A DNA stretch of 62,711 bases, taken from assembly GCA_030835125.1 (NCBI GenBank), contig JAUQWM010000048.1:1-62711 (forward strand), in the 5' to 3' direction. Under the pieces are notes generated by a model. That model searched no databases and had not been told where the DNA came from. It was given only the letters and a program-made list of their open reading frames with translations. Below are positions 1 through 58,587 of the stretch, in pieces; position 1 is the stretch's first letter, and each line of letters starts with the position of its first letter. This DNA is from Gemmatimonadaceae bacterium. GTDB lineage: Bacteria > Gemmatimonadota > Gemmatimonadetes > Gemmatimonadales > Gemmatimonadaceae. Position numbers and translations under genes: made by a program.

Positions 1-45
1 GAGTTGAGAGTTGCGAACTCTCTCAACTCTCAACTCTCAACTCCC
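1..45. repeat. Heptamer array, GAGTTGA/AACTCTC type, cut by window edge
   Basis: Positions 1-14 hold GAGTTGA and GAGTTGC; 25-45 hold AACTCTC, AACTCTC and AACTCCC. GAGTTGAGAGTT at 1-12 is a perfect inverted match of 25-36 and 32-43, so the array can fold. It ends 2 nt beyond the stop codon of the reverse-strand M24 peptidase gene. It may extend past the left edge. Confidence 0.85.
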
Positions 46-47
46 AA

Positions 48-1427
48 CTACATGACAAGATGCCACGCCGCCTGGCGGCGGATCGCCCACCGCGGCTTGC
101 CGTCGGCACCGATGATGAAATCTTCCTCCTGCGGGACCCGCACCGGCTGCCCGTTCCACTCCGGCACTGGCGTCGTCACCTGCAGCTCCGCCGAATACCA
201 CATGCCCGGGATCACCTTCGCATCGCCACGCCCGGGCACGCCTTCCTGGTAGTCCCAGAGCCCGATCAGCGGGCCGGAACCGTGGCCATGCATGCCGATG
301 GGGTGCGAGTACATCGTTCCGTTCAGCCCCTCGGACTTCATCCTCGACAGCGTCGACGCCAGGATCTCGTTCCCGGTGCGACCGGGCCGGGTCTCCTCGA
401 GCAGGATGTCCTGCAACCGGTTCGCATTCTTCAAGGCGGCCTTCAGGCCCGGCGGCGCGTCGCTTTCACGGTCCCGCAACACGTACGCCATGTGCTGTGT
501 GTCGGTGTTCAACCGGAGCGCGGTGATCCCGACATCACAGTGGAGCACGTCTCCCTTCAGGATGATGGGATCTTCTCCCAGTTGGTCGGCGCTCACGCCC
601 TGGCGCTGCACGTCGACCGACGGCTGGAACCACGTACCGAGCCCGAGGTCGTTCACCTGCTGCCGCCACCACCACACCAGGTCACTCGTTCGTGTGACCC
701 CCGGCTTGATGACCTCACTCGAGTACATGCGGCCGATCAGGTCCCAGACCAGCCCCTGCAGGCGCCGGTAGAACGCCTCTTCCTCGGGAATGCGCGCGGC
801 GATGAAGTCGACCGGCAGGCCCTCCGCGGGCTTCACGCGCGAAGTCCATTCGGTGCCGAGCGACAGCGCCATTCCCTCGATCTCACCTGACGACAGGCCG
901 TCGGCGAATGCGAACGTGCGGGACGTGTTGATCCCGATGACACGAGGGTTGCGCTGCGCCAGCACGTCCTTGAGCACCTGCCACTGGGCGTCGCCCCACA
1001 GCTCCGCCTGGCGTCCATCCTCGGTGGACTTCGTCGTGCGGACTGCCTCGTACAGCCCTTCCTGGGACGTGCCGCCAAGGGCGATGCGTTCCACGCAGGA
1101 ACCGTCGCCGGGATCGGTCCGTCCGCTCGCGGCGCACCGGTCGAAGAAGACGTAGATGGTGCGACGGCGCGCCGCGAATGTCGTCGGCGACACCAGCGAG
1201 GTGAACGTCGGGTCCTCGTTGTACTCGCGCATCGGGATCACCCACATGTCGATCCCGTGCTTGCGCATGAGTCCGGGCAGCACCGTTTTCAGCCGCTTCT
1301 CGAGCCATGACTGCTGCAGCGCAGCCTGCTCGCGCAGCGTACCGAACGGTCGCGACTGCGCGCTCGCGTCGCGACCGGTGCACACGGCACCGGCGACCAG
1401 GAGCGCGGTGAAGAGCGGCTTCCTCAT
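48..1427 (-). CDS. M24 family metallopeptidase (Xaa-Pro peptidase fold), exported
   Basis: A 459-residue protein of the creatinase/aminopeptidase P fold. Residues 1-23 form a signal peptide ending near ASA-Q, so it probably acts in the periplasm. The family's five metal ligands are all visible: D298 in HCDVG, D309, H375 in SHPIGMHGHG, E414 in SAELQ and a Glu at 434/435. An N-terminal creatinase-like domain fills about residues 35-200. The family cleaves N-terminal Xaa-Pro bonds or related substrates; the actual substrate cannot be told. The start at 1427 has AGGAG about nine bases upstream; an in-frame start at 1484 would place 19 non-signal residues before the signal peptide. Heptamer repeats follow directly after the stop. 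Confidence 0.88.
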   Translation of the reverse strand: MRKPLFTALLVAGAVCTGRDASAQSRPFGTLREQAALQQSWLEKRLKTVLPGLMRKHGIDMWVIPMREYNEDPTFTSLVSPTTFAARRRTIYVFFDRCAASGRTDPGDGSCVERIALGGTSQEGLYEAVRTTKSTEDGRQAELWGDAQWQVLKDVLAQRNPRVIGINTSRTFAFADGLSSGEIEGMALSLGTEWTSRVKPAEGLPVDFIAARIPEEEAFYRRLQGLVWDLIGRMYSSEVIKPGVTRTSDLVWWWRQQVNDLGLGTWFQPSVDVQRQGVSADQLGEDPIILKGDVLHCDVGITALRLNTDTQHMAYVLRDRESDAPPGLKAALKNANRLQDILLEETRPGRTGNEILASTLSRMKSEGLNGTMYSHPIGMHGHGSGPLIGLWDYQEGVPGRGDAKVIPGMWYSAELQVTTPVPEWNGQPVRVPQEEDFIIGADGKPRWAIRRQAAWHLVM

Positions 1428-1660
1428 GGTTCTGTCTCCTGAATCAGGCCCCTTCCCCGGGCGGCAGCCACCGGCAGCGCCCACGACGACTGCGACGTTC
1501 TACGTTGAAGAGGTCGCGTCCGCCAGTAGTCCCGCCAGTGCCGGCAGGCCGCGGGTTCGCCCCGGAACGACCTTCCCGGCGTTTCAGGGTACGTTCAGGT
1601 GACGAACACGCCAACGATGGGCCCGCGTGACATGCGGGCACCCCGGGACCCAGCGACCGC

Positions 1661-2359
1661 ATGACTCCATTCAACGATCGACCTGGCCGGGGCGGGCGAC
1701 TTCCGCGGTCGGTGAAGCTCATCCTCTGGCTTCTCGTGATCGCCGCCGTGGTGGCCGATGCAGGCCTCGTCACCCGTTACCTGCGATATCGCGCCGAAAC
1801 GGCGCGCCTCCGGGAGGGCATGACCGACGCCCAGCGAGCGCGCGCCGACGCCGTGGTGGCTGCCGAGCGGCACCGGTTCCGGGTCGAAATGGAGCTGATC
1901 CGTCGACAGTCCCGGGACGACCGTACGCTTCACCTCGCCGTGAACGTCGACAGCGGACGCATGGTCCTCGAGCGCGACGGCGTCATCCTCAGGGAAATGG
2001 CGGTGGCGGTCGGCCCGGAACGATTCCGGGGAGCCGCGACGGACTCGACGATCGAGGTCGCGGCGCTCGGCCAGCGAACGGTCGATCGGGTCCTCGACGA
2101 CACGGATCGCTGGGAGGTTCCGGAATCGGTCTTCAGTGACCGAGGACTCCCCGTGCCCGAAGACCAGCGTATTGCCGGCGCGCTCGGGGACCATGCCATC
2201 GTCCTTGGCGATGGCACCGTGATCTACAGCACTCCGGCGAGCGGTCCACTCGCTGACTCAGCGTACGTGCTTCCCGGGTCGGTTCGTGTGCCCCAGGAAG
2301 ACCTGAAGGCAGTCGCGGCGAATATCCGGCCCGGCATGTCCGTCTACTTCTACCGATGA
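1661..2359 (+). CDS. YkuD-like protein lacking the catalytic Cys and His (pseudo-L,D-transpeptidase)
   Basis: A 232-residue protein with one membrane segment (about residues 19-40) and a C-terminal domain that lines up with the YkuD domain of the next gene. The C-terminal 29 residues match the neighbour's end pattern (VR..EDL......PGM.VYFY), but where an L,D-transpeptidase has SHGC this protein has LPGS: Ser207 replaces the nucleophilic Cys and Pro205 the His. The upstream active-site His (AIHGT in the neighbour) is Tyr (VIYST). It therefore looks unable to cross-link peptidoglycan by the known mechanism and may bind or regulate. It overlaps the active homologue by 4 nt. The alignment is by eye; family membership is inference. 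Confidence 0.7.
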
Positions 2360-3213: not shown

Positions 3214-3221
3214 CCATCGGG

Positions 3222-3253
3222 GTTTTCCCCTGGGGGATCTCCCGACGGAAAAC
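3222..3253 (+). terminator. Inverted repeat after the L,D-transpeptidase gene
   Basis: GTTTTCC at 3222-3228 pairs with GGAAAAC at 3247-3253 across 18 nt that include a second small stem. It starts 8 nt after the stop codon. There is no T-run after it, so termination is only a possibility. Confidence 0.35.
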
Positions 3254-3322
3254 GGGACCCGGATCAGCGATCTTTCGTAGGTTGGTGCAGATCGCACCAG
3301 CGTCGTTCCAAGCAGGCCCGCC

Positions 3323-4303: not shown

Positions 4304-4309
4304 GTACCG

Positions 4310-4333
4310 CGGGCGACGGGAAACCGTCGCCCG
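4310..4333. terminator. Bidirectional hairpin terminator
   Basis: CGGGCGACGG (4310-4319) and CCGTCGCCCG (4324-4333) form a perfect 10-bp stem with a GAAA tetraloop, followed by TTT. It sits between the converging M15 peptidase and aldo/keto reductase genes and can serve both. Confidence 0.8.
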
Positions 4334-4338
4334 TTTCC

Positions 4339-5358
4339 CTACCGGATCGCCGCCGCGCCAGGGAGCGGCGTGCCGTCGTGCCAGCCGCGGACGGCGTGCG
4401 GACGGTACGGTGACTCCAACGTCGCAACCTCCGCCGCTGAAAGCTCGACATCCAGGGCGGCAACGGCGTCCTCGAGATGTCCGGGCTTCGTCGCCCCGAT
4501 GATGGGTGCGGATACCCCCGGGCGCGACAGCAGCCAGGCCAGAGCCACCCGCGCTGGCGGCACGGAGCGGGCCTCGGCGACCTTCATCGTGGCGTCGACG
4601 ACATTCCAGTCCTCGGGCGCGTCATAGAGCTGGTCGGCGAGGACGGCATCGCCGGCATCCCGGGGAGTGGTGCTGTGATCCCCGCGCTTCCGCTTGCCGG
4701 TCAGCATGCCACGCGCGAGCGGTGACCACGGCAACACGCCCAGCCCCTCGGCGATGCACGCCGGGATCATCTCACGCTCCTCCTCACGGTAGATGAGGTT
4801 GTAGTGCGGCTGCATCGAGATGAAGCGCGCCCAGCCACGCCGTTCGGACACCGACAGCATCTTCACCAGTTGCCAGGCATGCATCGTGCTCGCGCCCAGG
4901 TACCGGACCTTTCCCGTGTGCACGAGGTGATCGAGCGCGCCGAGGATCTCCTCGACGGGCGTGGTCGCATCATGCCGATGGATCTGGTAGAGGTCGATCG
5001 CCTCCACACCCAGGCGACGCAGGCTGGCTTCGCACCCCTGCACGATGTGCTTGCGCGAGAGCCCGACCATGTTGGGCCCCTCCCCCATCTTGAAGCGCAC
5101 CTTCGTCGCGATCACCAACTCGTCGAGCCGGCCGTACTCGCGGAGGGCGGCGCCGGTGATCTCCTCGCTCACGCCAAGCGAATATGCGTCCGAGGTGTCG
5201 AAGAGGTTGATCCCGAGTTCGATGGCCCTTCGGAAGAAGGGCATGGCTTCGTCGCGCTCGAGGACCCACGGACGCCAGTTCCTCGACCCGTAGGACATGC
5301 AGCCGAGGCCGATGCGCGAGACGACGAGTCCGGACGATCCGAGGTGGGAGTAGAACAC
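4339..5358 (-). CDS. Aldo/keto reductase
   Basis: A 339-residue NADPH-dependent oxidoreductase of the AKR TIM-barrel fold, cytoplasmic. The catalytic tetrad is visible as D54 and Y59 (FDTSDAY), K86 (IATK) and H127 (QIHRHD). The nucleotide-binding end shows APIIGATKPGHLEDA. It resembles the potassium-channel-beta/YajO-like group acting on carbonyls, but the substrate is unknown. The start is a GTG at 5358 fitted to the family N-terminus; there is no recognisable ribosome-binding site because a heptamer repeat array begins about 11 nt upstream of the start codon. Confidence 0.92.
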   Translation of the reverse strand: MFYSHLGSSGLVVSRIGLGCMSYGSRNWRPWVLERDEAMPFFRRAIELGINLFDTSDAYSLGVSEEITGAALREYGRLDELVIATKVRFKMGEGPNMVGLSRKHIVQGCEASLRRLGVEAIDLYQIHRHDATTPVEEILGALDHLVHTGKVRYLGASTMHAWQLVKMLSVSERRGWARFISMQPHYNLIYREEEREMIPACIAEGLGVLPWSPLARGMLTGKRKRGDHSTTPRDAGDAVLADQLYDAPEDWNVVDATMKVAEARSVPPARVALAWLLSRPGVSAPIIGATKPGHLEDAVAALDVELSAAEVATLESPYRPHAVRGWHDGTPLPGAAAIR

Positions 5359-5368
5359 GGGTCAGAGG

Positions 5369-5932
<564 letters not shown>

Positions 5933-5995: not shown

Positions 5996-7027
5996 CTAAG
6001 GCACGGACAGCCGCCTGGCGAGCCAGGCTGCGCTGGTCGCGGAGTGGCGACGCCAGTACTCCCAGGTGTGGGCCCCGGGGTGCTCCCTGTATTCAAAAGG
6101 GACCCCGAGACGCCCGAGTGCGTCACGGAACGCCCGGTTGTGCGGCAGGAGGAAGTCCTCGGTACCGCAGTCGACCATCAGGGCCGGCATCGCCCCCGGT
6201 CGCCGCGATTTCAGGCGAGCGGCCATGGTTGCCGGATCGCGAGCGGCCCATCCAGTGCTGTCGGAACCGAACACGGGAGCTTCCAGCGCCCAAAGTGACG
6301 GAGCGTAGGACGCGCGCAGCGAGTCCAGGTCGAAGCGACCGACCGGCACGGGCAGTCGTCCGCCACCGAGCGCGGGGGCGAGCATTCCCGAATGACTCGC
6401 GGCCGCCGAGAACACGTCGGGATATGCGAGCGCGAGCGTGATGGCCCCGTATCCGCCCATCGAAAGCCCGGCGATCCCACGATGGCGCGCATCGGCGCGG
6501 GAGCGGTATCGCCCGTCGATAAACGCGACGAGGTCCCTCGCGATGTACTCATCGTAGTGCGGCCATGGCACGCAATAGCGGTCGGAGGGCTCGGCATTCG
6601 CGGGTCGATTTCGCCGGCAGCCGGCATAGTCGCCGAGGAAGTTCCAGGTGGTGTAGAACCCGTCGTCACCGTCGGGCATGACCACGATCATCTCGGGGCT
6701 GCCGGCGGCGGCGAGTGAATCGAGCGTGGTTGCCAACCGGCCGATGTTCAGCCAGTTGGTCTCGTCACCGAAGGCGCCGTGCAGGTAGTAGGCGACGGGG
6801 TATCGACGGTCCGCTTCCGCTGCGTACGACGGAGGCAGCCAGACCATTGCGCGTTTGTGGGTGCCGAGGGACTGGGACCAGAAGGTCGTTTCCTCAACGG
6901 CGAGGCTGCGTGCTGATTGCTGCCTGCTGCTGCTGGAACTGCGGGCTGGGGCTGGATGCTGGGGCTGGGGCTGGGGCTGGGGCTGGATCCACCCTGGCGT
7001 AATCAGGAGGGCGAACCAGAGCGCCAT
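5996..7027 (-). CDS. Exported esterase of the alpha/beta-hydrolase fold (putative esterase D family)
   Basis: A 343-residue serine esterase. A signal peptide (residues 1-13) is followed by a low-complexity stretch of alternating Gln-Pro (15-23) and poly-Ser (about 29-33), then the PF00756-like domain. The nucleophile is in GLSMGG, the acid in DCGTEDF and the base in HPGAHTWEYW; YYLHGAFGD forms the oxyanion region. Members hydrolyse acyl esters such as acetylxylan, enterobactin or mycolyl esters; this substrate is unknown. The low-complexity linker is encoded by the 6-bp and 7-bp repeat words also found between genes. The reading frame stays open to 7090, overlapping the next gene and other repeats, so I chose the Met preceding the hydrophobic segment. 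Confidence 0.85.
   Translation of the reverse strand: MALWFALLITPGWIQPQPQPQPQHPAPARSSSSSRQQSARSLAVEETTFWSQSLGTHKRAMVWLPPSYAAEADRRYPVAYYLHGAFGDETNWLNIGRLATTLDSLAAAGSPEMIVVMPDGDDGFYTTWNFLGDYAGCRRNRPANAEPSDRYCVPWPHYDEYIARDLVAFIDGRYRSRADARHRGIAGLSMGGYGAITLALAYPDVFSAAASHSGMLAPALGGGRLPVPVGRFDLDSLRASYAPSLWALEAPVFGSDSTGWAARDPATMAARLKSRRPGAMPALMVDCGTEDFLLPHNRAFRDALGRLGVPFEYREHPGAHTWEYWRRHSATSAAWLARRLSVP
6904..6987. repeat. TGCTGAT-type heptamers and CTGGGG hexamers inside a coding region
   Basis: Words TGCTGAT, TGCTGCC and TGCTGCT run from 6911 to 6931, and four exact CTGGGG units from 6959 to 6982. They lie inside the esterase gene just after the signal peptide and encode its Ser-rich and Gln-Pro linker. 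The same words occur between genes at 52301-52324 and 54702-54837. Confidence 0.9.
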
Positions 7028-7054
7028 CCTCGCCGGGTTACCATGTCCCGTCTT

Positions 7055-7075
7055 CCATCTCCCATCTCCCATCTC
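7055..7075. repeat. Three tandem CCATCTC words
   Basis: Exact CCATCTC copies at 7055, 7062 and 7069. The last overlaps the stop codon of the anchored RidA gene. Two related ATCTCC-type words lie at 58574-58587, also between genes. Confidence 0.85.
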
Positions 7076-7619
7076 ACTTCTGCCTCGCAATGCACTCGAT
7101 CTCGACCCGCGCGTTCAGCGCCAGCCCATTGGCACCGAGGGCGCTCCGCGCCGGCTTGTTGTTGGGAAAGAACGTCGTGTACACCTCGTTCATCGCGTCC
7201 CACTCCTTCATGTCCGCCATGAACACGGTGCACTTGACGACATGCTCCATCGAGGAGCCCGATTTCTCCAGGACCTCCTTGATGTTCTCCATCGTCTGCC
7301 GCGTCTCCGCCTGGATGCCGCCGGCTACCACACCGCCCTGTGCGCTGGCGCTCGTGCCGATCTGCCCGGCGAGGTAGAGCATGTCGCCCACCTGCACCGC
7401 CGGCGTGAATGGCCGTGTCGGCCGCCCGTACGGCATGTGATACGTGATGCCGTTCACCGTCTCGCGCAGGCCGCCGTCCTGCGTCGTCACGACCGTCGGC
7501 GCCGCAGGGGACTCGGCCGCGCTGGCGGTTTGCCGCTCCTTCGCCCGCGTGGAGAACAGGACCGCTACGACAACGGCGACGAGGCCGACGAGGATGGCGA
7601 CAATCCGGCGAAGGGGCAC
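7074..7619 (-). CDS. RidA family protein with N-terminal membrane anchor
   Basis: A 181-residue protein: an N-terminal hydrophobic anchor (about residues 6-22), a linker to about residue 60, and a YjgF/YER057c/UK114 domain. The domain shows YLAGQIG, the substrate-carboxylate Arg in PARSALG and the ending EIECIA. Cytoplasmic RidA proteins hydrolyse reactive enamines and imines from PLP enzymes; an anchored version probably faces the periplasm, where that chemistry is less expected. GTG start with AGGAG eight bases upstream. Its role here is unknown; a different, free RidA lies in the anthranilate operon. Confidence 0.87.
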   Translation of the reverse strand: MPLRRIVAILVGLVAVVVAVLFSTRAKERQTASAAESPAAPTVVTTQDGGLRETVNGITYHMPYGRPTRPFTPAVQVGDMLYLAGQIGTSASAQGGVVAGGIQAETRQTMENIKEVLEKSGSSMEHVVKCTVFMADMKEWDAMNEVYTTFFPNNKPARSALGANGLALNARVEIECIARQK

Positions 7620-14251: not shown

Positions 14252-15964
14252 ATGAGCGCCCCAGTCGCCACGCCCAAGCCGCGCGCGGCATCCGAGTCTC
14301 AGCCAATTCCCGCCCCCGCTCCGGCGCCCGGCCTCGTCGGGTTCAACGGCATTCGCCGCGTCCCCCCGCCCGTCAACGAACCGGTCCGCTCCTACGCGCC
14401 GGGCTCCCCCGAGCGCGCGTCGCTCAAGGCCCGGCTCGCCTCGATGGCGACGGAACGGATCGAGATCCCGATCATCATCGGCGGGCAGGAATACCGCTCC
14501 GGGGAGACCGCGCAGGCGGTGATGCCGCACGCCCACGGCCACGTCCTCGCCGACTGGCACAAGGCGACCCCGAAGCACGTGGAGATGGCGATCGCCACCG
14601 CGACCCGCGCCCAGCGGGAGTGGGCGAACTGGCCGTGGGAGGATCGGGCCGCCGTCTTCCTGCGGGCCGCCGAGCTCCTGGCCACCACGTGGCGCGACAC
14701 GCTGAATGCCGCCACGATGCTCGGGCAATCGAAGACCGCGTTCCAGTCCGAGATCGATGCGGCGTGTGAGCTGGTCGACTTCTGGCGCTTCAACATCCAG
14801 TACGCACAGGAGATCTACGCCGAGCAGCCGATCTCGAGCCCCGGCGTCTGGAACATGTCCGACTACCGGGCGCTCGAAGGATTCGTGTACGCGATCACGC
14901 CGTTCAACTTCACGGCAATCGGCGGCAACCTGCCCACCGCGCCGGCCCTGATGGGGAACGTGGCGGTCTGGAAGCCGGCGTCGAGCGCGATGCTCTCGGC
15001 GTATTACCTCATGAAGCTGCTGCAGGAGGCCGGGCTGCCCGACGGCGTCGTGAACTTCGTGCCGGGCGACGCCGTGATGATCAGCGACGCGCTGCTCTCC
15101 CATCGCGACCTGGCCGGCGTGCACTTCACGGGCAGCACGGGCGTCTTCAACAGCATGTGGAAGACGATCGGCGCGAACATGTCACGCTACCGGTCGTATC
15201 CGCGCATCGTGGGCGAGACAGGCGGCAAGGACTTCATCGTCGCGCACCCGTCGTCCGACCCGCAGGCGCTCGCCGTGGCGATCGCGCGGGGCGGGTTCGA
15301 GTACCAGGGACAGAAGTGCTCGGCAGCGAGCCGGGCGTACATCCCGCGATCGCTGTGGAACGAGGTGCGCGACCGGACCGTGGCGATCATGGGCGAGCTG
15401 CGCATGGGAGACGTGCGCGACTTCCGGAACTTCATGGGCGCCGTGATCGACCGGAAGGCGTTCGACAAGATCAGCGAGTACCTCGACGACGCGAAGCGGA
15501 ACGCCCGCGTGATCGCCGGAGGGACGGCCAGGGGAGAGGAGGGATACTTCATCGCCCCCACGCTGGTGGAGGCCCCGTCGCCGGACTATCGCCTGCTCTG
15601 CGAGGAGATCTTCGGCCCCGTGGTCACGGTGTGGGTCTACGACGACGCGAAGTGGAGTGAAACGCTCGACGTGGTGGACCAGACGTCGCCCTACGCGCTG
15701 ACGGGCGCCGTGTTCTCGCGGGACCGCAACGCGGCGCGCGAGGCGCTGGGCGCGCTGCGGAACGCCGCGGGCAACTTCTACATCAACGACAAGCCGACGG
15801 GCGCGGTGGTCGGGCAACAGCCCTTTGGCGGCGCCCGCGCGAGCGGGACGAACGACAAGGCGGGATCGAAGTGGAACCTGATGCGCTGGGTCAGCCCCCG
15901 GAGCATCAAGGAAACGCTGGTGCCGCCAACGGATTACCGGTACCCGTTCCTCGGGGCGGAATGA
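14252..15964 (+). CDS. pruA: L-glutamate gamma-semialdehyde (P5C) dehydrogenase
   Basis: A 570-residue aldehyde dehydrogenase that oxidises glutamate semialdehyde from proline breakdown to glutamate, using NAD. The layout and motifs (TPFNFTAIGGNLPTAPALMG, FTGST, E322 in GETGGKD, catalytic C356 in GQKCSAAS, GEYF-like end PFGGARASGTNDKAG) match the monofunctional, eukaryote-like P5CDH rather than the PutA fusion. An extra Pro/Ala-rich N-terminus of about 25 residues is unusual. Start at 14252 has GGAGAG six bases upstream; the open frame to 14069 has no support. No proline dehydrogenase gene is adjacent. GTTGAGA repeats begin 11 nt after the stop. Confidence 0.95.
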   Translation: MSAPVATPKPRAASESQPIPAPAPAPGLVGFNGIRRVPPPVNEPVRSYAPGSPERASLKARLASMATERIEIPIIIGGQEYRSGETAQAVMPHAHGHVLADWHKATPKHVEMAIATATRAQREWANWPWEDRAAVFLRAAELLATTWRDTLNAATMLGQSKTAFQSEIDAACELVDFWRFNIQYAQEIYAEQPISSPGVWNMSDYRALEGFVYAITPFNFTAIGGNLPTAPALMGNVAVWKPASSAMLSAYYLMKLLQEAGLPDGVVNFVPGDAVMISDALLSHRDLAGVHFTGSTGVFNSMWKTIGANMSRYRSYPRIVGETGGKDFIVAHPSSDPQALAVAIARGGFEYQGQKCSAASRAYIPRSLWNEVRDRTVAIMGELRMGDVRDFRNFMGAVIDRKAFDKISEYLDDAKRNARVIAGGTARGEEGYFIAPTLVEAPSPDYRLLCEEIFGPVVTVWVYDDAKWSETLDVVDQTSPYALTGAVFSRDRNAAREALGALRNAAGNFYINDKPTGAVVGQQPFGGARASGTNDKAGSKWNLMRWVSPRSIKETLVPPTDYRYPFLGAE

Positions 15965-15974
15965 GGAAGAACCA

Positions 15975-16002
15975 GTTGAGAGTTGAGAGTTGAGAGTTGA
16001 GA
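15975..16002. repeat. Four tandem GTTGAGA words
   Basis: Exact GTTGAGA copies at 15975, 15982, 15989 and 15996 between pruA (ends 15964) and the PhzF gene (starts 16032). The same word, inverted, makes up 5425-5452 and the 1-45 array. Confidence 0.95.
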
Positions 16003-16031
16003 GAGCTCGCCACCGTCGACTCCCGACCTCC

Positions 16032-21330: not shown

Positions 21331-22266
21331 ATGCGTCCCTCCTTCCTGCTCACCGCGGTCTCGCTCAGCCTCGTTGCCTGCAGCCGCGGAGGCGAGGCGC
21401 CGGCGGCCGACTCCAGCTCCCTGTTGCCGCTGACGGCCTCCCTGGCCACCGAGACCGGCGGAATGAAGTCGCCCGAATCCGCGCGGTACGACGCGGAGCT
21501 CGACGTGTTCTACGTGTCGAACATCGACGGCAATCCATCGGCCCGGGATGGCAACGGGTTCATCGCCGTCGTGCCGGCGGAATCGCTCGGCATCATGCGG
21601 GTGCTCGTGGCCGGGGGAAAGGGTGGCGCAACGCTCAACGCGCCCAAGGGACTCGCCCTCAGCGGCGACACGCTCTGGGTCACCGATATCGACGCGGTAC
21701 GCGGCTTCAATCGTCGCACCGGGGCGCCGCTCGCGACCATCGACCTGTCGGCGCAGGGCGCCACGTTCCTCAACGATGTCGCCGTCGGGCCGAACGGCGC
21801 CCTCTATGTCACCGACAGCGGGATTCGAATCGAGGCCGACGGCTCGACAACGCAGCCCGGGCCGGCGCGGATCTTCAAGGTCGCCCAGGGCGCCGCCACC
21901 GAGCTGGCTCGCGGCGAGGCGCTGCATAACGTGAACGGCCTGACGTGGCAGGACACCACCGGGGTCTGGCTCCTGGCGTCCTCGTCGAATGACGTGATGA
22001 CCTGGTCCGAGGGCGACTCGCTCCCGAAAGCCCTGGCGACCGGACCGGGGGGTTATGATGGCATCGAGGCCTTGAGCGACGGCCGGGTCTTGGTGTCCAG
22101 CTGGGCCGACAGCGCCGTGCACCTCATCACGAATGGCGCGATGACGACGCTCATCCCCAACGTCAGCGCCCCGGCCGATATCGGCTACGACTTGAAGCGG
22201 GGAGTCATCGCCGTGCCGCGGTTACAGGACGGCAAGGTCGGGTTCTACCAGCTGAAAGCGGGTTGA
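21331..22266 (+). CDS. Lipoprotein with SMP-30/NHL-type beta-propeller
   Basis: A 311-residue lipoprotein (lipobox SLVAC near residue 17). The mature part is built of repeated propeller blades (LNAPKGLALSGDTLWVTD, FLNDVAVGPNGALYVTD, NVNGLTW) like gluconolactonase/SMP-30 or NHL proteins. The paired Asn and Asp residues expected for a metal site of SMP-30 are partly present, so an enzymatic role such as lactone hydrolysis is possible but not shown. The stop TGA is followed directly by a heptamer-repeat hairpin that lies between it and the converging Tat-protein gene. Confidence 0.82.
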   Translation: MRPSFLLTAVSLSLVACSRGGEAPAADSSSLLPLTASLATETGGMKSPESARYDAELDVFYVSNIDGNPSARDGNGFIAVVPAESLGIMRVLVAGGKGGATLNAPKGLALSGDTLWVTDIDAVRGFNRRTGAPLATIDLSAQGATFLNDVAVGPNGALYVTDSGIRIEADGSTTQPGPARIFKVAQGAATELARGEALHNVNGLTWQDTTGVWLLASSSNDVMTWSEGDSLPKALATGPGGYDGIEALSDGRVLVSSWADSAVHLITNGAMTTLIPNVSAPADIGYDLKRGVIAVPRLQDGKVGFYQLKAG

Positions 22267-22414
22267 TTGCAGAGTGCAGATTGCAGATTGCTGATTGATG
22301 ATTTGGAGTCGCCCCACTCTGCACTCTGCCGGCCAAGTCCAGATGCGGGCTGATGATGATTTGGAATTCGCCCAATCTGCACTCTGCGATCTGCAATCTG
22401 CACTCTGCAATTGT
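22265..22414. repeat. Heptamer array folding as a hairpin between convergent genes
   Basis: Words CAGAGTG, CAGATTG, CAGATTG, CTGATTG at 22270-22297 face CACTCTG, CGATCTG, CAATCTG, CACTCTG at 22380-22407; read as a stem, 25 of 28 positions pair. Between them lies a direct repeat, 22297-22328 versus 22355-22386 (27 of 32 identical), each copy ending in the same words. The array fills the gap between two convergent genes and may act as a bidirectional terminator. Confidence 0.9.
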
Positions 22415-23070
22415 CAGGCTGACGCTGGGAAGAAGTGGCAGCCGGAGCGTTGCGCCTCGATCACCGCGAAGAACCCCGAAGGCTGCAGGATCACCCCCGG
22501 GATCAGGTACTTGAGCGCCGCCTCACGCGCTTCCGCGTTCTCCACCTTGAGCTTCTTCGCCTCCCTGCCAACCAGGAAGCCGAAGGCATAGTTGCACGCC
22601 AGGACGATGCCGCCCCCGGCGATGAACCCGTCGAGGTTCGTTCCGCGGCGCTTTTCCGGGTCCACCGACACGAACGGGTTGTGCTTCACGGCCTTCCCCG
22701 TGGCCGGGTCGTGGATCTTGTCCTTCTTGCTGACCTCGTGGCGTTCCCAGAACTCATGGTTCATGATCATCGGGATCGCCTCATGCCGTATCACCAGCAC
22801 CGCGGACGCGTCCCTGGCGTCGTCGCCATAGACCGTCTGGACCGTCCGCTTCCAGTCAACCGCCCGCCACAGCCCGGCCCCGTCGTTCACCGTCGGGGAA
22901 TCGAACACCGCGCGGAACGCGCCGCCGATCCGGTCGCGCCAGGCCAGGTCCCAGTCCGCGCTCACCGGGGCCGGACCCGGCCCTGCCGCACCTAACGCCG
23001 CGGGCAGGAAGGCGCCCCCGGCCGATACCGCCGCCAGGTGGCCAAGGAACTCTCGCCGATTGCGTGCCAT
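22414..23070 (-). CDS. Tat-exported DsrE-like protein of unknown function
   Basis: A 218-residue protein with a twin-arginine signal (NRREFLGHL at residues 4-12, cleavage near AAG). The C-terminal part (YLIPGVILQPSGFFAVIEAQ) resembles DsrE/DsrF-like proteins, a fold used in sulfur transfer, but the conserved Cys is at a different place (one Cys in the last ten residues, one in VLACNYAF). Function is unknown. Export through Tat suggests it folds or binds a cofactor in the cytoplasm. ATG 23070 is preceded by GGAGG. The gene ends within the repeat array that separates it from the SMP-30-like gene. Confidence 0.72.
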   Translation of the reverse strand: MARNRREFLGHLAAVSAGGAFLPAALGAAGPGPAPVSADWDLAWRDRIGGAFRAVFDSPTVNDGAGLWRAVDWKRTVQTVYGDDARDASAVLVIRHEAIPMIMNHEFWERHEVSKKDKIHDPATGKAVKHNPFVSVDPEKRRGTNLDGFIAGGGIVLACNYAFGFLVGREAKKLKVENAEAREAALKYLIPGVILQPSGFFAVIEAQRSGCHFFPASA

Positions 23071-41236: not shown

Positions 41237-41240
41237 CTAC

Positions 41241-41289
41241 ACTCCGCACTCCGCACTCCGCACTCCGCAATCTGCAATCTGCAATCTGC
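41241..41289. repeat. Seven phased heptamers: ACTCCGC x4, AATCTGC x3
   Basis: Exact ACTCCGC at 41241, 41248, 41255 and 41262, then AATCTGC at 41269, 41276 and 41283, ending 6 nt before the stop of the RND gene. The words are the reverse complements of GCGGAGT and GCAGATT in the 5369-5424 array, so both arrays are one family in opposite orientation. Confidence 0.96.
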
Positions 41290-41294
41290 AATCC

Positions 41295-44200
41295 CTAGTC
41301 TCCCGCTTCCGGCACCGCCCGCGGAACGACCCGATGCTCCGCGGTCTTCTGTGACACCCGGAAGCCCAGCTTCCGGCTGAACCAGCTCCGCCAGCCGTCG
41401 AAGATCTCGTAGAACGTCGGGATCGCGATCAGCGTCAGCAGCGTCGACGTGATCACCCCGCCGATGACGGCCCGGCCTAACGGCGCCCGGAAATCCGCGC
41501 CCTCGCCCGCCCCGATCGCCACCGGCATCATGCCGGCGATCAGCGCGAACGTCGTCATGAGGATCGGCCGCAACCGGATCGCGCCGCCCTCGATCAGCGC
41601 GTCGCGCAGCGACAACCCGTCCCGCTCGCGCGACCACTTCGCGAAGTCGATGAGCAGGATGGCGTTCTTCGCCACGATCCCCATCAGCAGGATCACCCCG
41701 ATCAGGCTCATGATGTTCAGCGTGTCGCCCGTGGCCAGCAGCATCAGCACCACGCCGATCAACGACAGCGGCAGCGACATCAGGATCGCCAGCGGATCGA
41801 TGAACGACCCGAACTGCATCACCAGGATCAGGTACATCAGGAGCACCGCCGTGCCCAGCGCCGCGAAGACCTGGCCGAACACCTCGGCCTGGTCCTTCGC
41901 CTCGCCGCCCTGCGTGATCCGGTACCCCTCCGGGAACTCCGCCTCGATCGGCGCCAGGCGCTCCTCGATGTCGGTCAGCACTTCCGTCAGGGACCGGCCC
42001 TCGGTGTTGGCCTGGACCGTCACCACCTTCGACCGGTCCAGGTGGTCGATCTGCGCCGGGCCGATGTTCTGGCGGACCGTCGCGATCTGGCCTAACGGGA
42101 GCGTGACCGGGCCGTTCGGGCCGCTGACCGTGATCGGCAGCTGCTCCAGGTCCGCGGTCCGGCTCCGCGCCTCGGCGGCCAGCCTGACGCGAACGTCGCG
42201 GGTCTCTCCCTGCGGGTCCACCCAGTCACCGGCGTCGATGCCGGCGAACGCCGGGCGCAGCGCCTGCGCCACCTGTCCCACCGTGATGCCCAGCGTGCCG
42301 GCCACGCCCCGGTTCAACTGCACGTCGAGTTCCGGCTTCTGGCCCTTCGTCGACAGGCCGACGTCCACGGCGCCCGGCACCTGGCGCACCTCGCCGGCGA
42401 CGCGCTCGGCCAGGGCGGCCAGCGTCCGGGAATCCTCGCCGCGCACCTCGAGCTGGATCTGCTTCAGGTTGCCCGACCAGACATTGCTGAACACGGTGAA
42501 GGTGGCGCCACCGATGGACCCCATGTCCCGCCGCAGCGCGGTCGTGAACGCCGCCTGGCCGACATCCCGCTCCGCCTTCTTCACCATCTTGATGTAGACG
42601 TCGGCGCGATCGACCGCGCCGGACGCGCCCCCGATCGTCGTGTAGGTCGCGGCCGTTTCCTTGTACCCGCGCGCGATCCGGGCCGCTTCCTCCGCCTTGA
42701 GCCGCGTGTACTCCAGGTTCGAGCCCGGCGGGGTCTCCACCACGATCAGTGCCTCGGAGTTGTCCGATTCCGGCATGAACCCGCCACCGCCGAACGTCGC
42801 CTGCAGCGCGATCGCGCCGACGAACGACAGCGTGGACAGCCCGACGACCGTCCAGCGGTGGTCGAGGGCCCACGCGATCACCTTGCGGTAGTTCTGCGAC
42901 TGGCGGTTGAACCACTTGTTGAACTTGTCCAGGGCGCGCGAGATCGGGTTCCGATGCGCCCCCTCTTCCAGTTCCGGGTCCGCCCAGTACGCCGACAGCA
43001 TCGGGTCCAGCGAGAACGAGACGAACAGCGACACCAGCACCGAACAGGCGATCGTGAGCGCGAACGGCTTGAACCACTGTCCCGCGATCCCGCCGATGAA
43101 CGCGATCGGGATGAAGACCGAGACGATCGAGAAGGTCGTCGCCGCCACGGCCAGGCCGATCTCGTCGGTGCCCTCCCGCGACGCCGTGAAGTGGTCCTTC
43201 CCCATCTCGATGTGCCTGACGATGTTCTCGCGCACGACGATGGCATCGTCGATCAGGATCCCGATGGCCAGGGAGAGGCCCATCAGGGACATCGTGTTGA
43301 GCGTGAAGCCGAAGACCAGCACGGCGATGAACGACGCCAGCACCGACACCGGCAGGGCCAGGCCGGTGATCACCGTCGAGCGCCACGAGTTCAGGAACAG
43401 GAAGACGACCAGCACCGTCAGGAGCGCGCCCTCGATGAGCGCTTCCTCGACGTTGGCCACCGAGGCCTCGACCCGCTCACCCGAGTTCTTCACGACGTCG
43501 ATGCGCACGCCCTGCGGCAGCGTCGGCGTCAATTCCTCGAGGCGCGCCGCCACCCGCTCGGCGACGTCGGTCGTGCTGTATCCCTTCGACTTCCGCACGT
43601 CGAGGCCGACGGCGTCGCGCCCGTTGTAGATCGCCGCCGTCCGCTGCTCTTCCGTGCCATCGCGCACCGTCGCGACCTGGCCGAGCCGGATGATCTGGCC
43701 ATTCCGCTCGGCCACGACGAGCCGCAGGAAGTCCTCGGGCGCCTCCAGCCGGCCGCGCAGGCGGATCGTCTTCTCGTCGAGGGACCCGTTGATGCGTCCC
43801 ACCGGCGCGGCGAGGTTCTGTGACTGCAGCGCCCCGACCACGTCGCCGATCCCGATGCCGGCCTGCTGCAGCGCCTCGGGGCGCAGCTCGACTGTCAGCT
43901 CGCGCTGCACCGCGCCGGTGAGCCGCACGTCGGCGACCCCGGACAGCGCCCGCAGCTCGCGCGTGATCCGCGGGTCCACCACCCGGGTCAGTTCCGGTCC
44001 GTCCAGGACGTTCGACGCGACCGCGATCGAGAGGATCGGCTGGTCCGTCTCGCTGAACTTGCCGAGGATCGGCTCCTCGATCTCGAGCGGCAGGTCGCCG
44101 CGGATCTCGCCGATCTTGTCGCGCACCTCCTGCATCGCCTCCTGCAGGTCCTTGCTGTACACGAACTGCGTCATGATCCAGCTGTAGCCGTCCATCGATT

Positions 44201-44447
44201 GCGACTGTGTCCGCGACACGCCGGAGATGCCGGAGATCGCCTCCTCGATTGGATCCGTCACCTCGCGCTCGACGACGTCCGGCGACGCACCGGGGTAGAT
44301 CACCGTCGTCGTGACCACGGGCGCCACGACGTCCGGGAACTCGTCGGTGTCGAGGCGGAACAGCGAGAACAGGCCGAAGACGACCAGCGCCAGCATCACC
44401 GTCACGGTGACGATGGGGCGCTTGATGGCGAAATCCGAGATCATCAT
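41295..44447 (-). CDS. RND family efflux transporter permease (HAE1 type)
   Basis: A 1050-residue inner-membrane pump subunit with twelve helices and two large periplasmic loops. The proton-relay pair is in GILIDDAIVVREN (helix 4), and MGIVAKNAILLIDFAK is helix 10. It matches the MdtB/AcrB-like hydrophobe exporters more than heavy-metal pumps. With the adaptor and the outer-membrane factor from the same operon it would form a complete tripartite pump. The start is 10 nt after the adaptor stop, with GAGGA as ribosome site. Two TTA codons lie in CGTTAGG words. Confidence 0.95.
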   Translation of the reverse strand: MMISDFAIKRPIVTVTVMLALVVFGLFSLFRLDTDEFPDVVAPVVTTTVIYPGASPDVVEREVTDPIEEAISGISGVSRTQSQSMDGYSWIMTQFVYSKDLQEAMQEVRDKIGEIRGDLPLEIEEPILGKFSETDQPILSIAVASNVLDGPELTRVVDPRITRELRALSGVADVRLTGAVQRELTVELRPEALQQAGIGIGDVVGALQSQNLAAPVGRINGSLDEKTIRLRGRLEAPEDFLRLVVAERNGQIIRLGQVATVRDGTEEQRTAAIYNGRDAVGLDVRKSKGYSTTDVAERVAARLEELTPTLPQGVRIDVVKNSGERVEASVANVEEALIEGALLTVLVVFLFLNSWRSTVITGLALPVSVLASFIAVLVFGFTLNTMSLMGLSLAIGILIDDAIVVRENIVRHIEMGKDHFTASREGTDEIGLAVAATTFSIVSVFIPIAFIGGIAGQWFKPFALTIACSVLVSLFVSFSLDPMLSAYWADPELEEGAHRNPISRALDKFNKWFNRQSQNYRKVIAWALDHRWTVVGLSTLSFVGAIALQATFGGGGFMPESDNSEALIVVETPPGSNLEYTRLKAEEAARIARGYKETAATYTTIGGASGAVDRADVYIKMVKKAERDVGQAAFTTALRRDMGSIGGATFTVFSNVWSGNLKQIQLEVRGEDSRTLAALAERVAGEVRQVPGAVDVGLSTKGQKPELDVQLNRGVAGTLGITVGQVAQALRPAFAGIDAGDWVDPQGETRDVRVRLAAEARSRTADLEQLPITVSGPNGPVTLPLGQIATVRQNIGPAQIDHLDRSKVVTVQANTEGRSLTEVLTDIEERLAPIEAEFPEGYRITQGGEAKDQAEVFGQVFAALGTAVLLMYLILVMQFGSFIDPLAILMSLPLSLIGVVLMLLATGDTLNIMSLIGVILLMGIVAKNAILLIDFAKWSRERDGLSLRDALIEGGAIRLRPILMTTFALIAGMMPVAIGAGEGADFRAPLGRAVIGGVITSTLLTLIAIPTFYEIFDGWRSWFSRKLGFRVSQKTAEHRVVPRAVPEAGD

Positions 44448-52265: not shown

Positions 52266-52290
52266 GGTGCCGAGGCTCGTGCCCCAGCAG

Positions 52291-52335
52291 CCAGCTCCAG
52301 CCCCAGCCCCAGCCCCAGCCCCAGCCGCATGCGGC
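52291..52335. repeat. CCCCAG hexamer array and palindrome between convergent genes
   Basis: Four exact CCCCAG units (52301-52324) follow a CAGCTC-type start and abut the 12-bp palindrome GCCGCATGCGGC (52324-52335). Between the two converging glycosyltransferase genes. The same CCCCAG word, inverted, encodes the linker of the esterase at 6959-6982. Confidence 0.9.
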
Positions 52336-52376
52336 AGCCGCAGCCACCAGCAATCAGTACGCAGCTCCCTCCCTGC

Positions 52377-53495: not shown

Positions 53496-53583
53496 GGGGC
53501 GCTGGGTGGGGTCGGCCGGCTGGTGGCAGCAACGTACTCCGAACGCGCGCCAATTCCAGACCGTGCTTGCATGGCGTTCGCGC

Positions 53584-54699: not shown

Positions 54700-54701
54700 C
54701 A

Positions 54702-54837
54702 TGCTGCGTGCTGATTGCTGCGTGCTGATTGCTTCTTACTGCTGCTGGGTCTGCGGGCTGGGGCTGGCAACCAGCCCCGGCAACCTGCGGCAGCCCCCAG
54801 CAGGCAGCAATCAGAACGCAGCAACCAGCACGCAGTT
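54702..54837. repeat. Heptamer hairpin, TGCTGCG/TGCTGAT type
   Basis: Left arm (54702-54736): TGCTGCG, TGCTGAT, TGCTGCG, TGCTGAT, TGCTTCT. Right arm (54803-54837): GGCAGCA, ATCAGAA, CGCAGCA, ACCAGCA, CGCAGTT. Folded, word pairs with word and 29 of 35 positions match. The tip is a perfect GGGGCTGG-CAA-CCAGCCCC hairpin (54760-54778). It fills the gap between two convergent genes and looks like a bidirectional terminator or cruciform. Confidence 0.93.
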
Positions 54838-54844
54838 CCAACCC

Positions 54845-56308: not shown

Positions 56309-56314
56309 CGAGGA

Positions 56315-56818: not shown

Positions 56819-56961
56819 GGGGGCTCCACCCGAGGTAACCTCCCGGGCAATTTACCGCCCCGTCACGGCGCCCGGAGGCACTGCCCGCGACTGTCGCGCG
56901 CCCGTGCGCCGGTGCTACCGTAACATGTGGCTCCCCTCGCATCCCGCCAGCCCGTGACACC

Positions 56962-58500
56962 GTGCACCGGTTGAAGCACCCGGTACGCCTGGGGCTCCTG
57001 CTCGCCACGCTGGCGGCGCTGGGTGGCGGAGGCTGGTACGTCTACACGACGCTGACGGAACCGCTCGTCATCGACGCGCCACCGCCCGCCTTGCTCCCGG
57101 ACCTGCCGGACACCGCCGAGCCGCTGCCGGCGTCGGTCGTCGAGGCACCCATCACCTATGACATGTCCGGCGCCCTCGATTCGCTCGAGCGCGCCATCCC
57201 CCGCCGATTCGGCGACATCACCCAGAAGCTCCAGGCGGGAAACAACCGCCGCGCCCACTTCGCCTTCGCCGTCTCGCGCACGCCGTTCCGCCTCCGCCTC
57301 GAGGGGCGAACGGTGTCCCTGTCGACGACCGTCGAATACGAGGCCCGGGGCTGGTACCTCCCACCCATCGGACCCGAGATCAGCGCCGCGTGCGGAACGG
57401 GCGGCGTCCCGCGACCGAGGATCACCGCCACGCTCGTCTCCTCGGCGCAGATCACGCCCGACTGGCGGCTGCGGACCCGCACGCGGATCGGCCGGCTGGA
57501 GCCCGTCACCGACAGCGCCCGCGATCGTTGCCGCGTCACGCCCTTTCGCATCGACATCACCGATCGCGTGCTTCAGGCGACCCGCAACCTCCTCGAGGAG
57601 AGACTCCGGCGCATTGACGAGGGCGTCGCCGCCTGGGACTCGCGCTCGCGGTTCGAGCAGCTCTGGCGCGTGCTCCAGCGCCCGGTGCGCTTCACCGACA
57701 GCGTGTACATGACGATGGGCCCGTACAGCGCCCAGCTCGGCGCGCTGTCGGCGCAGGGCGACACCGTCATCGCGCGGCTCCGGCTGGTGGCATCGCCGCA
57801 GGTCGTCACCGGGCCGTACCCTAACGAGTTCGCGTTGATGAAGCCGATGCCCCGCCTGGGGCCGCGCACGCGGGTCGGCGATGGCGCGCACGTGCAGCTC
57901 GAGGGAACGCTCGCCTATCCGGTGGCCTCCGGCCTGCTGCGAAAGGCGCTGGTCGGGCGCGAGTTCCAGCAGGCGGGACGCCGGCTCGTCGTCGAGGACA
58001 TCGAGGTGCGCGGCATCGGCGGCGGCCGGGTCGCGCTCGGCCTGACCGTCGGCGGCGCCGTCCGGGGACGACTGTGGTTCACGGGCACCCCCGCGCTCGA
58101 TCGGGAACGACGCGAGCTGATCGTCCCCGACCTCGACGTCGACGTCGGCAGCGCCAACCTCCTCGTCCGCGGGCTGGATTGGCTCAAGGGCGAGGAGATG
58201 CGGAACTTCCTGCGCGCCCGCGCGCGCGTCTCCGAAGCGGAACTCATCGGCCGCCTGGGCCGCATGGCCGAGCAGGGCATCAACCGCACGCTGACCGATG
58301 GCATCGTCCTGTCGGGTCAGGTGCAGCGCGCCGAGGCGACCTCGGTGCGCGCATCCCTGCGGGAACTCCGGGTCCGCGCTCGCGCGGACGCCAACATCCG
58401 CCTCGACATCAGCAAGGCACCCAGCCTGCCGCGCGCACCGAATGCGATCCCGGCGCCGGCCGGGACCCGCGGCAAGGCACGGTCCAAGGCGAAGGATTAA
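56962..58500 (+). CDS. DUF4403 family protein
   Basis: A 512-residue protein anchored or exported by an N-terminal hydrophobic segment (about residues 9-28). The body is long beta-rich sequence of the DUF4403 type (VEAPITYDMSGALDSLERAI near residue 62; many charged strands), with a basic tail (RGKARSKAKD). The family resembles lipid-binding tubular proteins of the bactericidal/permeability-increasing kind, so envelope lipid binding is possible. GTG start at 56962. Function unknown. Confidence 0.8.
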   Translation: MHRLKHPVRLGLLLATLAALGGGGWYVYTTLTEPLVIDAPPPALLPDLPDTAEPLPASVVEAPITYDMSGALDSLERAIPRRFGDITQKLQAGNNRRAHFAFAVSRTPFRLRLEGRTVSLSTTVEYEARGWYLPPIGPEISAACGTGGVPRPRITATLVSSAQITPDWRLRTRTRIGRLEPVTDSARDRCRVTPFRIDITDRVLQATRNLLEERLRRIDEGVAAWDSRSRFEQLWRVLQRPVRFTDSVYMTMGPYSAQLGALSAQGDTVIARLRLVASPQVVTGPYPNEFALMKPMPRLGPRTRVGDGAHVQLEGTLAYPVASGLLRKALVGREFQQAGRRLVVEDIEVRGIGGGRVALGLTVGGAVRGRLWFTGTPALDRERRELIVPDLDVDVGSANLLVRGLDWLKGEEMRNFLRARARVSEAELIGRLGRMAEQGINRTLTDGIVLSGQVQRAEATSVRASLRELRVRARADANIRLDISKAPSLPRAPNAIPAPAGTRGKARSKAKD

Positions 58501-58573
58501 CGAGCGACCGCCGGGCCCGTCTGACGCCACTGAAGACGGGAGACGGGGACGTTCCGTCCCGAACACCTAGCTG

Positions 58574-58587
58574 ATCTCCCATCTCCG
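58574..58587. repeat. Two ATCTCC-type heptamers
   Basis: ATCTCCC at 58574 and ATCTCCG at 58581, between the DUF4403 and Spy-like genes. Same family as 7055-7075. A short tandem ACGGGAG/ACGGGGA pair lies nearby at about 58535-58548. Confidence 0.5.

What the first reader, a model, noticed from the sequence alone, without database searches (positions are those of the whole stretch)
1..58587. Dispersed family of 7-bp tandem word arrays at gene borders
At least nine places carry short tandem arrays of 7-bp words (1-45, 5369-5452, 6904-6931, 7055-7075, 15975-16002, 22265-22414, 41241-41289, 54702-54837, 58574-58587), plus 6-bp CCCCAG arrays at 6959-6982 and 52301-52324. The word types are GCAGAGT/GCAGATT/GCGGAGT, GTTGAGA, TGCTGCG/TGCTGAT and CCATCTC. 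Words keep strict 7-nt phase even when the type changes (5424/5425). All lie between genes, at stop codons, or in one linker. This resembles the short tandemly repeated repetitive (STRR) heptamers known from filamentous cyanobacteria, which I do not know to be described in this kind of organism. Possible roles: terminators, recombination or slippage sites, nucleoid protein binding.
Basis: partly seen in the sequence, partly recalled or inferred. Interest (0 to 1): 0.85.

Follow-up and report, generated by a model that had tools for sequence, protein, structure and literature searches.

The report
Two-armed seven-base repeat insertions
A bacterial genome of the phylum Gemmatimonadota carries many short blocks of repeated seven-letter DNA words that sit against gene ends and even inside DNA-polymerase genes, mostly pointing away from the gene they touch, which suggests that a DNA copying or repair process writes them rather than simple slippage.

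Summary
The arrays are real: 8 in the window against a shuffle mean of 0.12; 145 in 849 kb of the genome against 0 to 3 at periods 4, 5, 8, 10, 11 and 13. One listed site (58574-58587) is at chance level. The genome is a Gemmatimonadota bin; sampled relatives are near background.
(1) Words have polarity: read away from the adjoining gene, the G-leaning form appears at 3' ends (61 of 69, leave-one-out) and at 5' ends (20 of 26; 4 reverse, 2 undecided); in new regions 33 of 36. (2) Neighbouring arrays are two arms, [word ... reverse complement of a word]: 22 to 0 against the opposite order in gaps, 19 to 2 in other species. (3) Among genes they concentrate, in frame, in dnaE2: 43 arrays in 244 kb against 3 in 466 kb of other coding DNA; DnaE1 carries one too.
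Heptamer repeats are known (STRR, Xanthomonas GGGAATC), so this is a new variant. I favour templated extension of both 3' ends of a break, then joining; that mechanism is inferred, not shown.

The parts
1..49 (.). two-armed GTTGAGA element cut by the contig end: G-rich arm 1-13, spacer, C-rich arm 20-49, touching the stop of the M24-peptidase-like gene 48-1427 (-)
   Evidence: RNA fold z -7.5
5360..5424 (+). GCAGAGT/GCAGATT/GCGGAGT array, G-rich arm, next to the start of the aldo/keto-reductase gene 4339-5358 (-)
5425..5455 (-). GTTGAGA array, second arm, overlapping the 3' end of gene 5435-5932 (-)
   Evidence: the pair folds no better than shuffles (z -0.23)
6904..6986 (+). one arm of the dispersed TGCTGNN/GGGGCT element (7-mers then 6-mers), in the gap 6847-7074
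   Evidence: does not fold alone (z +1.3)
7048..7081 (-). CCATCTC array (word GAGATGG on the - strand) at the 3' end of gene 7074-7619 (-)
15974..16003 (+). single GTTGAGA array, 9 bp after the stop of the aldehyde-dehydrogenase gene 14444-15964 (+); the same gap in the congener G001 holds a TGCTG-type element instead
22265..22412 (.). two-armed GATTGCA/GAGTGCA element between convergent genes; G-rich arm 22265-22303 begins inside the stop codon of gene 21331-22266 (+), C-rich arm 22373-22409 is 4 bp from the stop of 22414-23070 (-)
   Evidence: fold z -6.6
41240..41293 (-). single array, word changes in phase from CACTCCG to CAATCTG; 1 bp from the stop of the AcrB-family gene 41295-44447 (-)
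   Evidence: fold z -0.67
52281..52365 (-). opposite arm of the TGCTG/GGGGCT element (CCCCAG 6-mers), between convergent genes
54702..54837 (.). complete two-armed TGCTGCG-TGCTGAT/GGGGCT element between convergent genes
   Evidence: fold -98 kcal/mol, z -10.0
58574..58587 (.). two-copy CCATCTC run; not distinguishable from chance

Best explanation
The arrays are arms of small two-armed insertions. Shown: an arm is most often about four 7-nt units (lengths peak at 30-31 bp) of one of a few dozen words; the G-leaning form of the word mostly reads away from the flanking sequence on both sides, so a complete insertion is [W]n - short centre - [reverse complement of W']n; W and W' may differ; the same architecture occurs between genes of any orientation and inside reading frames. 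Inferred: at a break or gap, both 3' ends are extended by copying a heptamer-repeat template (most likely existing arrays, by template switching), and the two ends are then joined. Selection removes what breaks genes, so arms survive next to stop codons, less often next to starts, and in frame in a few loops, above all in dnaE2 and its neighbours imuB and imuA, whose products act in damage-induced synthesis (from established knowledge). When both ends copy the same word, the result is a hairpin, as at 54702-54837. Which enzyme does it, what the template is and whether the arms have any use are not shown.
For: Polarity: 3' ends 61 of 69 leave-one-out; 5' ends, not used for training, 20 outward, 4 reverse, 2 undecided of 26; new regions, picked for one word, 33 of 36. 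Arm order FR against RF: own gaps 22:0, new own regions 12:0, congener G001 12:1, other species 19:2 (several pairs come from the same locus). In 12 neighbouring pairs inside genes: FR 7, RF 2, RR 2, ?R 1; the 7 FR pairs there do not pair better than re-paired arms (870 of 5000), so hairpin selection does not explain their order; in gaps arms do match (0 of 5000). Trans-copying: words shared by arrays over 250 bp apart in one species' DnaE2 13 of 43, against 67 of 978 between species. End phase: 15 of 25 GTTGAGA arms end ...TTGAGAG, 14 of 24 AGGCATC arms ...CATCAGG, 7 of 11 AGGGTCG arms ...GTCGAGG. Orthologous sites can keep an array but change the word. Host genes look functional: pN/pS 0.26 for DnaE2 and 0.21 for DnaE1 between congeners.
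Against: No break, template or enzyme was observed. No reverse transcriptase (PF00078) or Y1 transposase (PF01797) was found in the genome, which leaves template switching as a guess. Ku is present here but in 19 of 25 genomes, array-poor ones included, so it does not discriminate. FF and RR neighbours occur (7 of 29 gap pairs; 10 of 23 in G001). GTGACTC arms have no single end phase (7, 5, 5, 2 of 19) and AGGCATC arms start in many phases. The complementarity of gap arms would also follow from selection for hairpins. Single arms lying against one gene end need extra end loss in this model. The intragenic order test rests on 12 pairs, nearly all from one operon. The word-polarity scale was learned from this genome's own 3' ends.
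Confidence: 0.36

Rival explanations
1. Hairpin elements of REP/BIME type, spread as dyads by an unknown mobilising activity and kept as 3'-end or intergenic RNA hairpins (terminators, mRNA end protection).
For: 38 of 117 non-coding arrays have an inverted partner within 250 bp against 9.4 in the control, direct partners 11 against 10.8; gap arms complementary beyond chance; three window elements fold with z -6.6 to -10; convergent gaps hold 31 arrays (10.7 kb of gap DNA), divergent gaps 15 (27.8 kb).
Against: 79 of 117 non-coding arrays have no partner; single arrays folded poorly; arms of different words keep the same order, also inside genes; little conservation beyond the array for GTTGAGA and AGGCATC; no Y1/RAYT family match in the genome; words change at orthologous sites.
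Confidence: 0.22
2. Ordinary 7-nt simple-sequence repeats grown by polymerase slippage (the published idea that 7 nt matches the polymerase contact length), filtered by selection.
For: Sharp period-7 preference; stepwise word changes inside arrays; heptamers are the most abundant long-repeat class in most genomes (PMC4679880 introduction passage).
Against: Word sharing between unlinked sites, polarity at both gene ends and two-arm order are not expected from local slippage.
Confidence: 0.19
3. Selected protein- or ribosome-binding words: a lineage-specific nucleic-acid-binding protein recognises the heptamers at gene ends.
For: Orientation rule and closeness to stops (35 of 61 tandem-gap arrays within 10 bp of the stop, permutation maximum 23).
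Against: 45 word classes have an exact tandem dimer in 849 kb; orthologous gaps in the congener use other words or none; arrays also sit inside coding loops.
Confidence: 0.12
4. G-quadruplex elements as proposed for Xanthomonas and Nostoc heptamers.
For: GGGAATC occurs here too (AATCGGG class in 6 arrays); four full units are commonest (63 of 145 arrays).
Against: The commonest words (GTTGAGA 24 arrays, AGGCATC 20, GTGACTC 15) have no GGG, yet obey the same rule.
Confidence: 0.04

Closest known systems
GGGAATC (Xanthomonas) and GGGGA(C/T)T (Nostoc) heptameric repeats, PMC4692102 (passages incl. parts of the abstract, and sections 13, 15, 16 read)
   Same: 7-nt unit, preference for four units, mostly intergenic, G-rich strand close to the ORF on the coding strand downstream and on the non-coding strand upstream (the same outward rule), some inverted pairs, length and sequence variation between related species, GGGAATC itself shared
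   Different: Here dozens of words per genome, the commonest without GGG; two-armed architecture with unlike arms; in-frame concentration in dnaE2 and its neighbours and an array in DnaE1; other phylum
STRR heptamers of filamentous cyanobacteria (recalled; one passage in PMC4692102 mentions three heptanucleotides in Calothrix PCC 7601)
   Same: several 7-nt words in tandem (recalled: dispersed, intergenic)
   Different: Polarity and two-arm order not known to me for STRR; different phylum; sequences not compared
TAACTGA direct repeats of Beggiatoaceae, PMC4679880 (abstract and passages read)
   Same: dispersed 7-nt direct repeats, patchy distribution across taxa
   Different: One dominant word; in the main genome studied mostly just upstream of start codons
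REP/REPIN-RAYT elements (recalled)
   Same: dispersed dyads in gene gaps
   Different: No fixed palindrome seen, no Y1/RAYT match found, single arms common
Short interstitial telomeric sequences at eukaryotic repair sites (recalled)
   Same: G-leaning repeat strand extends 3' ends
   Different: Many words, bacteria, no reverse transcriptase match, two unlike arms

Membership tests
Heptameric tandem repeats (STRR / Xanthomonas-Nostoc type) | unit of exactly 7 nt, dispersed in many copies | tested here: met
   145 arrays at period 7 in 849 kb; 0 to 3 at periods 4, 5, 8, 10, 11, 13
Heptameric tandem repeats (STRR / Xanthomonas-Nostoc type) | mainly intergenic | tested here: met
   117 of 145 arrays outside or at the edge of predicted genes, coding fraction 0.89
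Heptameric tandem repeats (STRR / Xanthomonas-Nostoc type) | G-rich strand reads away from the ORF on both sides (as in PMC4692102) | tested here: met
G-quadruplex heptamers | runs of three or more G in four units | tested here: not met
   The three most frequent word classes lack GGG; GGGAATC-type arrays (6) would meet it
REP/REPIN with RAYT | Y1-type transposase gene in the genome | tested here: not met
   PF01797: no match at E 0.001 in the own genome, 99% complete
REP/REPIN with RAYT | conserved palindrome sequence | tested here: inconclusive
   No conserved flank for GTTGAGA and AGGCATC (at most 0.6 bit per column); higher values for AGGGTCG, GATTGCA and GAGGTCC look like degenerate units beside the array; GTGACTC arms are sometimes followed by GGCAC
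Intrinsic terminators | hairpin at gene 3' end followed by a T run | tested here: inconclusive
   Inverted partner in 38 of 117; T runs were not scored
Phase-variable contingency repeats | unit-number change that switches a reading frame | tested here: inconclusive
   Frame changes in 2 of 80 DnaE2 loci (L113, L127), neither with an array; 18 of 80 loci have arrays; one consensus per MAG
Reverse-transcribed repeat addition (telomerase, retron, DGR) | reverse transcriptase in the genome | tested here: not met
   PF00078: no match at E 0.001 in G000 or G001; G001 is 72% complete
STRR of cyanobacteria | common descent with cyanobacterial repeats | not tested
   Cyanobacterial STRR sequences were not compared

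The most novel reading that the evidence does not exclude
Bacteria have a repeat-adding repair route that extends both 3' ends of a break with a G-leaning heptamer and joins them, leaving two-armed scars that turn over quickly, pile up in the genes of the error-prone polymerase complex, and also explain the unexplained strand rule of the Xanthomonas and Nostoc heptamers.
Probability: 0.2. Interest if true: 0.9.

Novelty: new variant of a known kind. Interest (0 to 1): 0.72.

Why it matters
Heptamer excess in bacteria has been on record without a demonstrated mechanism or role (PMC4692102 discussion). A polarity that holds at both gene ends, across many words and several lineages, and inside coding sequence, moves the question from 'what do they regulate' to 'what DNA process writes them', and it can be tested. 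In-frame arrays inside the error-prone polymerase gene dnaE2 and the replicative DnaE1 tie the repeats to conserved polymerase genes and give natural, removable insertion sites.

Tried and rejected
Local slippage as sole cause: disfavoured because of word sharing, polarity and arm order. RT-driven or RAYT-driven spread: no family match found. Phase variation of the mutator operon: attractive because 7 is not a multiple of 3, but the two frame-changed loci of 80 have no arrays. Decay of dnaE2: disfavoured, pN/pS 0.26 and no stop in the frame. Sense-RNA function at 3' ends: suggested by word orientation at stops, dropped when 5' ends showed the same outward form. A conserved inner end for GTGACTC arms (GGCAC) was seen in part of 19 arms and not for other words. 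Rfam: no hit in the window at gathering scores. The built-in control (pattern read backwards) is void because the GTTGAGA repeat is its own mirror image. Papers opened but not used: PMC4666352 (abstract), PMC7015867 (term search, no heptamer). Integron attC and G4 readings were considered on sequence only.

Weak points: gene calls are from my own codon-usage script, not a published caller, and missed ImuA; array thresholds are mine; the names ImuA, ImuB and Rv2578c-type radical SAM rest on matches below NCBIfam cut-offs plus gene order, while DnaE2 and DnaE1 pass theirs. Of 20 G001 contigs, four (C70, C8, C82, C34) were chosen by gene homology and 16 for repeat matches. The relatives' sample (593 kb) is at most 20 kb of one contig each, and shows 10 period-7 against 8 period-8 arrays. 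The extra regions were picked for GAGTCAC hits. My note 3 says 20 of 24 intragenic arrays lie in the mutasome genes; the recount is 19.
Full report
What was checked. The window is the start of contig C27 of a 4.48-Mb, 73-contig genome. A scan with its DnaE2 protein kept 80 loci; 77 carry Gemmatimonadota-type labels, two say only 'bacterium' and one says Kuenenia, so I take the genome as a Gemmatimonadota MAG. The window has 8 period-7 arrays at my threshold against a shuffle mean of 0.12 and maximum of 2; two-copy runs such as 58574-58587 are at chance (8 against 7.38). In 849 kb of this genome (window, C12, C8:1-200000, C59, C22:1-180000, end of C30, start of C26) there are 145 arrays of period 7; periods 4, 5, 8, 10, 11, 13 give 0 to 3; periods 6, 9, 12 give 27, 23, 15; the 105 at period 14 largely re-detect period 7. 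Lengths peak at 30 and 31 bp (29 of 145) and 63 of 145 have four full units. Forty-five word classes of 1172 possible show an exact tandem dimer; AACTCTC (GTTGAGA) occurs in 24 arrays, AGGCATC in 20, ACGAGTC (GTGACTC) in 15. By simple proportion the genome would hold some 760 arrays.

Distribution. In 41 genomes (own plus 40 relatives) the GAGTCAC triple occurs only in the own genome and its one congener (2 of 41). Short samples of the 40 relatives hold 10 period-7 arrays in 593 kb, against 8 at period 8, so near background; the congener's own 8.6-kb sample has none. Another word, GACGGTG, is found in 2 of 121 genomes of the phylum, both in one genus. So burden and words are lineage-specific.

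Position. Of the first 80 arrays (459 kb), 36 lie in gaps, 20 overlap a gene edge (18 of them the stop end) and 24 lie inside predicted genes. Of 61 arrays in tandem gaps, 35 lie within 10 bp of the upstream stop (permutation mean 13.9, maximum 23) and 16 within 10 bp of the downstream start; 40 are closer to the stop, 20 to the start (permutation mean 30.6, maximum 46). Convergent gaps hold 31 arrays in 10.7 kb, divergent gaps 15 in 27.8 kb.

Polarity. I learned the word forms from arrays nearest to, and within 40 bp of, a 3' gene end, reading away from the gene. Leave-one-out, 61 of 69 agree. Arrays nearest a 5' end were not used for learning: of 26, 20 show the same outward form, 4 the reverse, 2 are undecided. 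In 19 further regions picked for GAGTCAC hits, 33 of 36 arrays near a gene end agree (10 more lay far from genes, 4 inside genes). Arrays without a neighbour follow it too (3' ends 35 to 1; 5' ends 10 to 4, 1 undecided, not leave-one-out). Since the rule is the same at both ends of genes, it is not a rule about transcript sense.

Two arms. Neighbouring arrays up to 150 bp apart in gaps: FR 22, RF 0, FF 5, RR 2 (29 pairs); inside genes: FR 7, RF 2, RR 2, ?R 1 (12 pairs). By G-C skew, other species' loci give FR 19, RF 2, FF 5 (26 pairs, several from one locus) and G001 FR 12, RF 1, FF 5, RR 5 (23 pairs). In gaps the FR arms pair better than re-paired arms (mean -38.7 against -23.5, 0 of 5000 as low); inside genes of this genome they do not (-20.5 against -19.1, 870 of 5000). 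So arm order is kept even where arms match no better than chance. In the window 54702-54837, 22265-22412 and 1-49 fold very strongly as RNA; 5360-5455, 6904-6986, 41240-41293 and 15974-16003 do not.

Inside genes. A radical-SAM gene, ImuA-like, ImuB-like and DnaE2 genes stand together at C8:88.2-96.5 kb. DnaE2 passes the NCBIfam cut-off for error-prone DNA polymerase (1218 bits, cut-off 939); the other three match ImuA, DNA polymerase IV and Rv2578c radical-SAM models only below cut-off. Their frames run through the arrays; the DnaE2 frame is open for 1425 aa, with the called start at C8:92656. Of 28 arrays inside predicted genes in the 849-kb sample, 19 are in the radical-SAM (2), ImuB (5) and DnaE2 (12) genes; two more are in ImuA, which my caller missed. 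The replicative DnaE1 (1280 bits, cut-off 1002) also has a GAGTCAC array, in a loop before VTQYDMNALE that is about 20 residues shorter in the Thermus polymerase; the congener has a different version in the same loop. Acetyl-CoA-synthetase-like (in both species), UvrD/PcrA and TGT genes carry arrays as well. Across the 80 loci, dnaE2 has 43 arrays in 243.7 kb, the genes just upstream 8 in 121 kb, other coding DNA 3 in 466 kb (one of these is antisense inside a DnaE2 match), gaps and edges 30 in 132 kb. Aligned DnaE2 proteins (65 of 81 with at least 1000 aa open) show 52 arrays in 17 sequences, 51 of them in five regions (core columns about 83, 315, 480-545, 890-915, 1011-1016). Congener comparison gives pN/pS 0.26 (DnaE2) and 0.21 (DnaE1), so the hosts are under constraint.

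Turnover. Among 13 comparable gene gaps between the two congeners, 2 have arrays in both, 3 only in G000, 3 only in G001, 5 in neither at threshold (most G001 contigs were picked for having repeats, and TGCTG-type elements can fall below the threshold). The gap after the aldehyde-dehydrogenase gene has GTTGAGA in one and a TGCTG-type element in the other.

Mechanism. Arrays without conserved flanks for the two main words, words shared by unlinked sites (13 of 43 against 67 of 978), arms that can differ, outward polarity, and a preferred end phase for three of four words tested (GTTGAGA 15 of 25, AGGCATC 14 of 24, AGGGTCG 7 of 11; not GTGACTC, best phase 7 of 19) fit extension of two 3' ends from a repeat template, followed by joining. 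No step of this was observed. No reverse transcriptase or Y1 transposase match was found. Ku is present but common.

Prior work. PMC4692102 (passages and sections 13, 15 and 16 read) reports for Xanthomonas and Nostoc that G-rich heptamers lie close to ORFs on the coding strand downstream and the non-coding strand upstream, prefer four units and sometimes form inverted pairs, with no known role. That is the outward rule found here. PMC4679880 (abstract and passages; [quoted passage not shown] I found no report for Gemmatimonadota in searches, nor of arrays in dnaE2/imuB in one search (13 papers, 10 listed; listings and abstract starts only).

Noticed in passing
window 1-49; ends of contigs C8, C12, C26, C30, C31, C36, C48, C49, C52, C55, C57 (both ends), C59 of G000: At least 14 of 146 contig ends, this window's included, lie within about 60 bp of a GTTGAGA-type array (the list is cut), so the assembly probably breaks at arrays and long arrays may be lost or shortened.
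   Followed up: partly
window 6904-6986, 52281-52365, 54702-54837: A dispersed element of about 80 bp per arm, 7-mers TGCTGNN followed by 6-mers GGGGCT; 18 places in 849 kb here and dozens of matches in G001.
   Followed up: partly
L256 1784-2088 (G001:C126): Two adjacent arrays, 167 and 135 bp, mostly CAGCACT-type heptamers, in a gap where G000 has none.
   Followed up: no
L063: A contig labelled Candidatus Kuenenia stuttgartiensis encodes a DnaE2 like those of Gemmatimonadota (59% identity); possibly a binning or labelling error.
   Followed up: no
L113 and L127: DnaE2 reading frames change within the gene, without any array nearby.
   Followed up: no
L045 8768-16032: Within the mutasome genes the second arm is most often GAGTCAC, the stop-free strand of GTGACTC; GTTGAGA, the commonest word, was in none of the 28 intragenic arrays.
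   Followed up: partly
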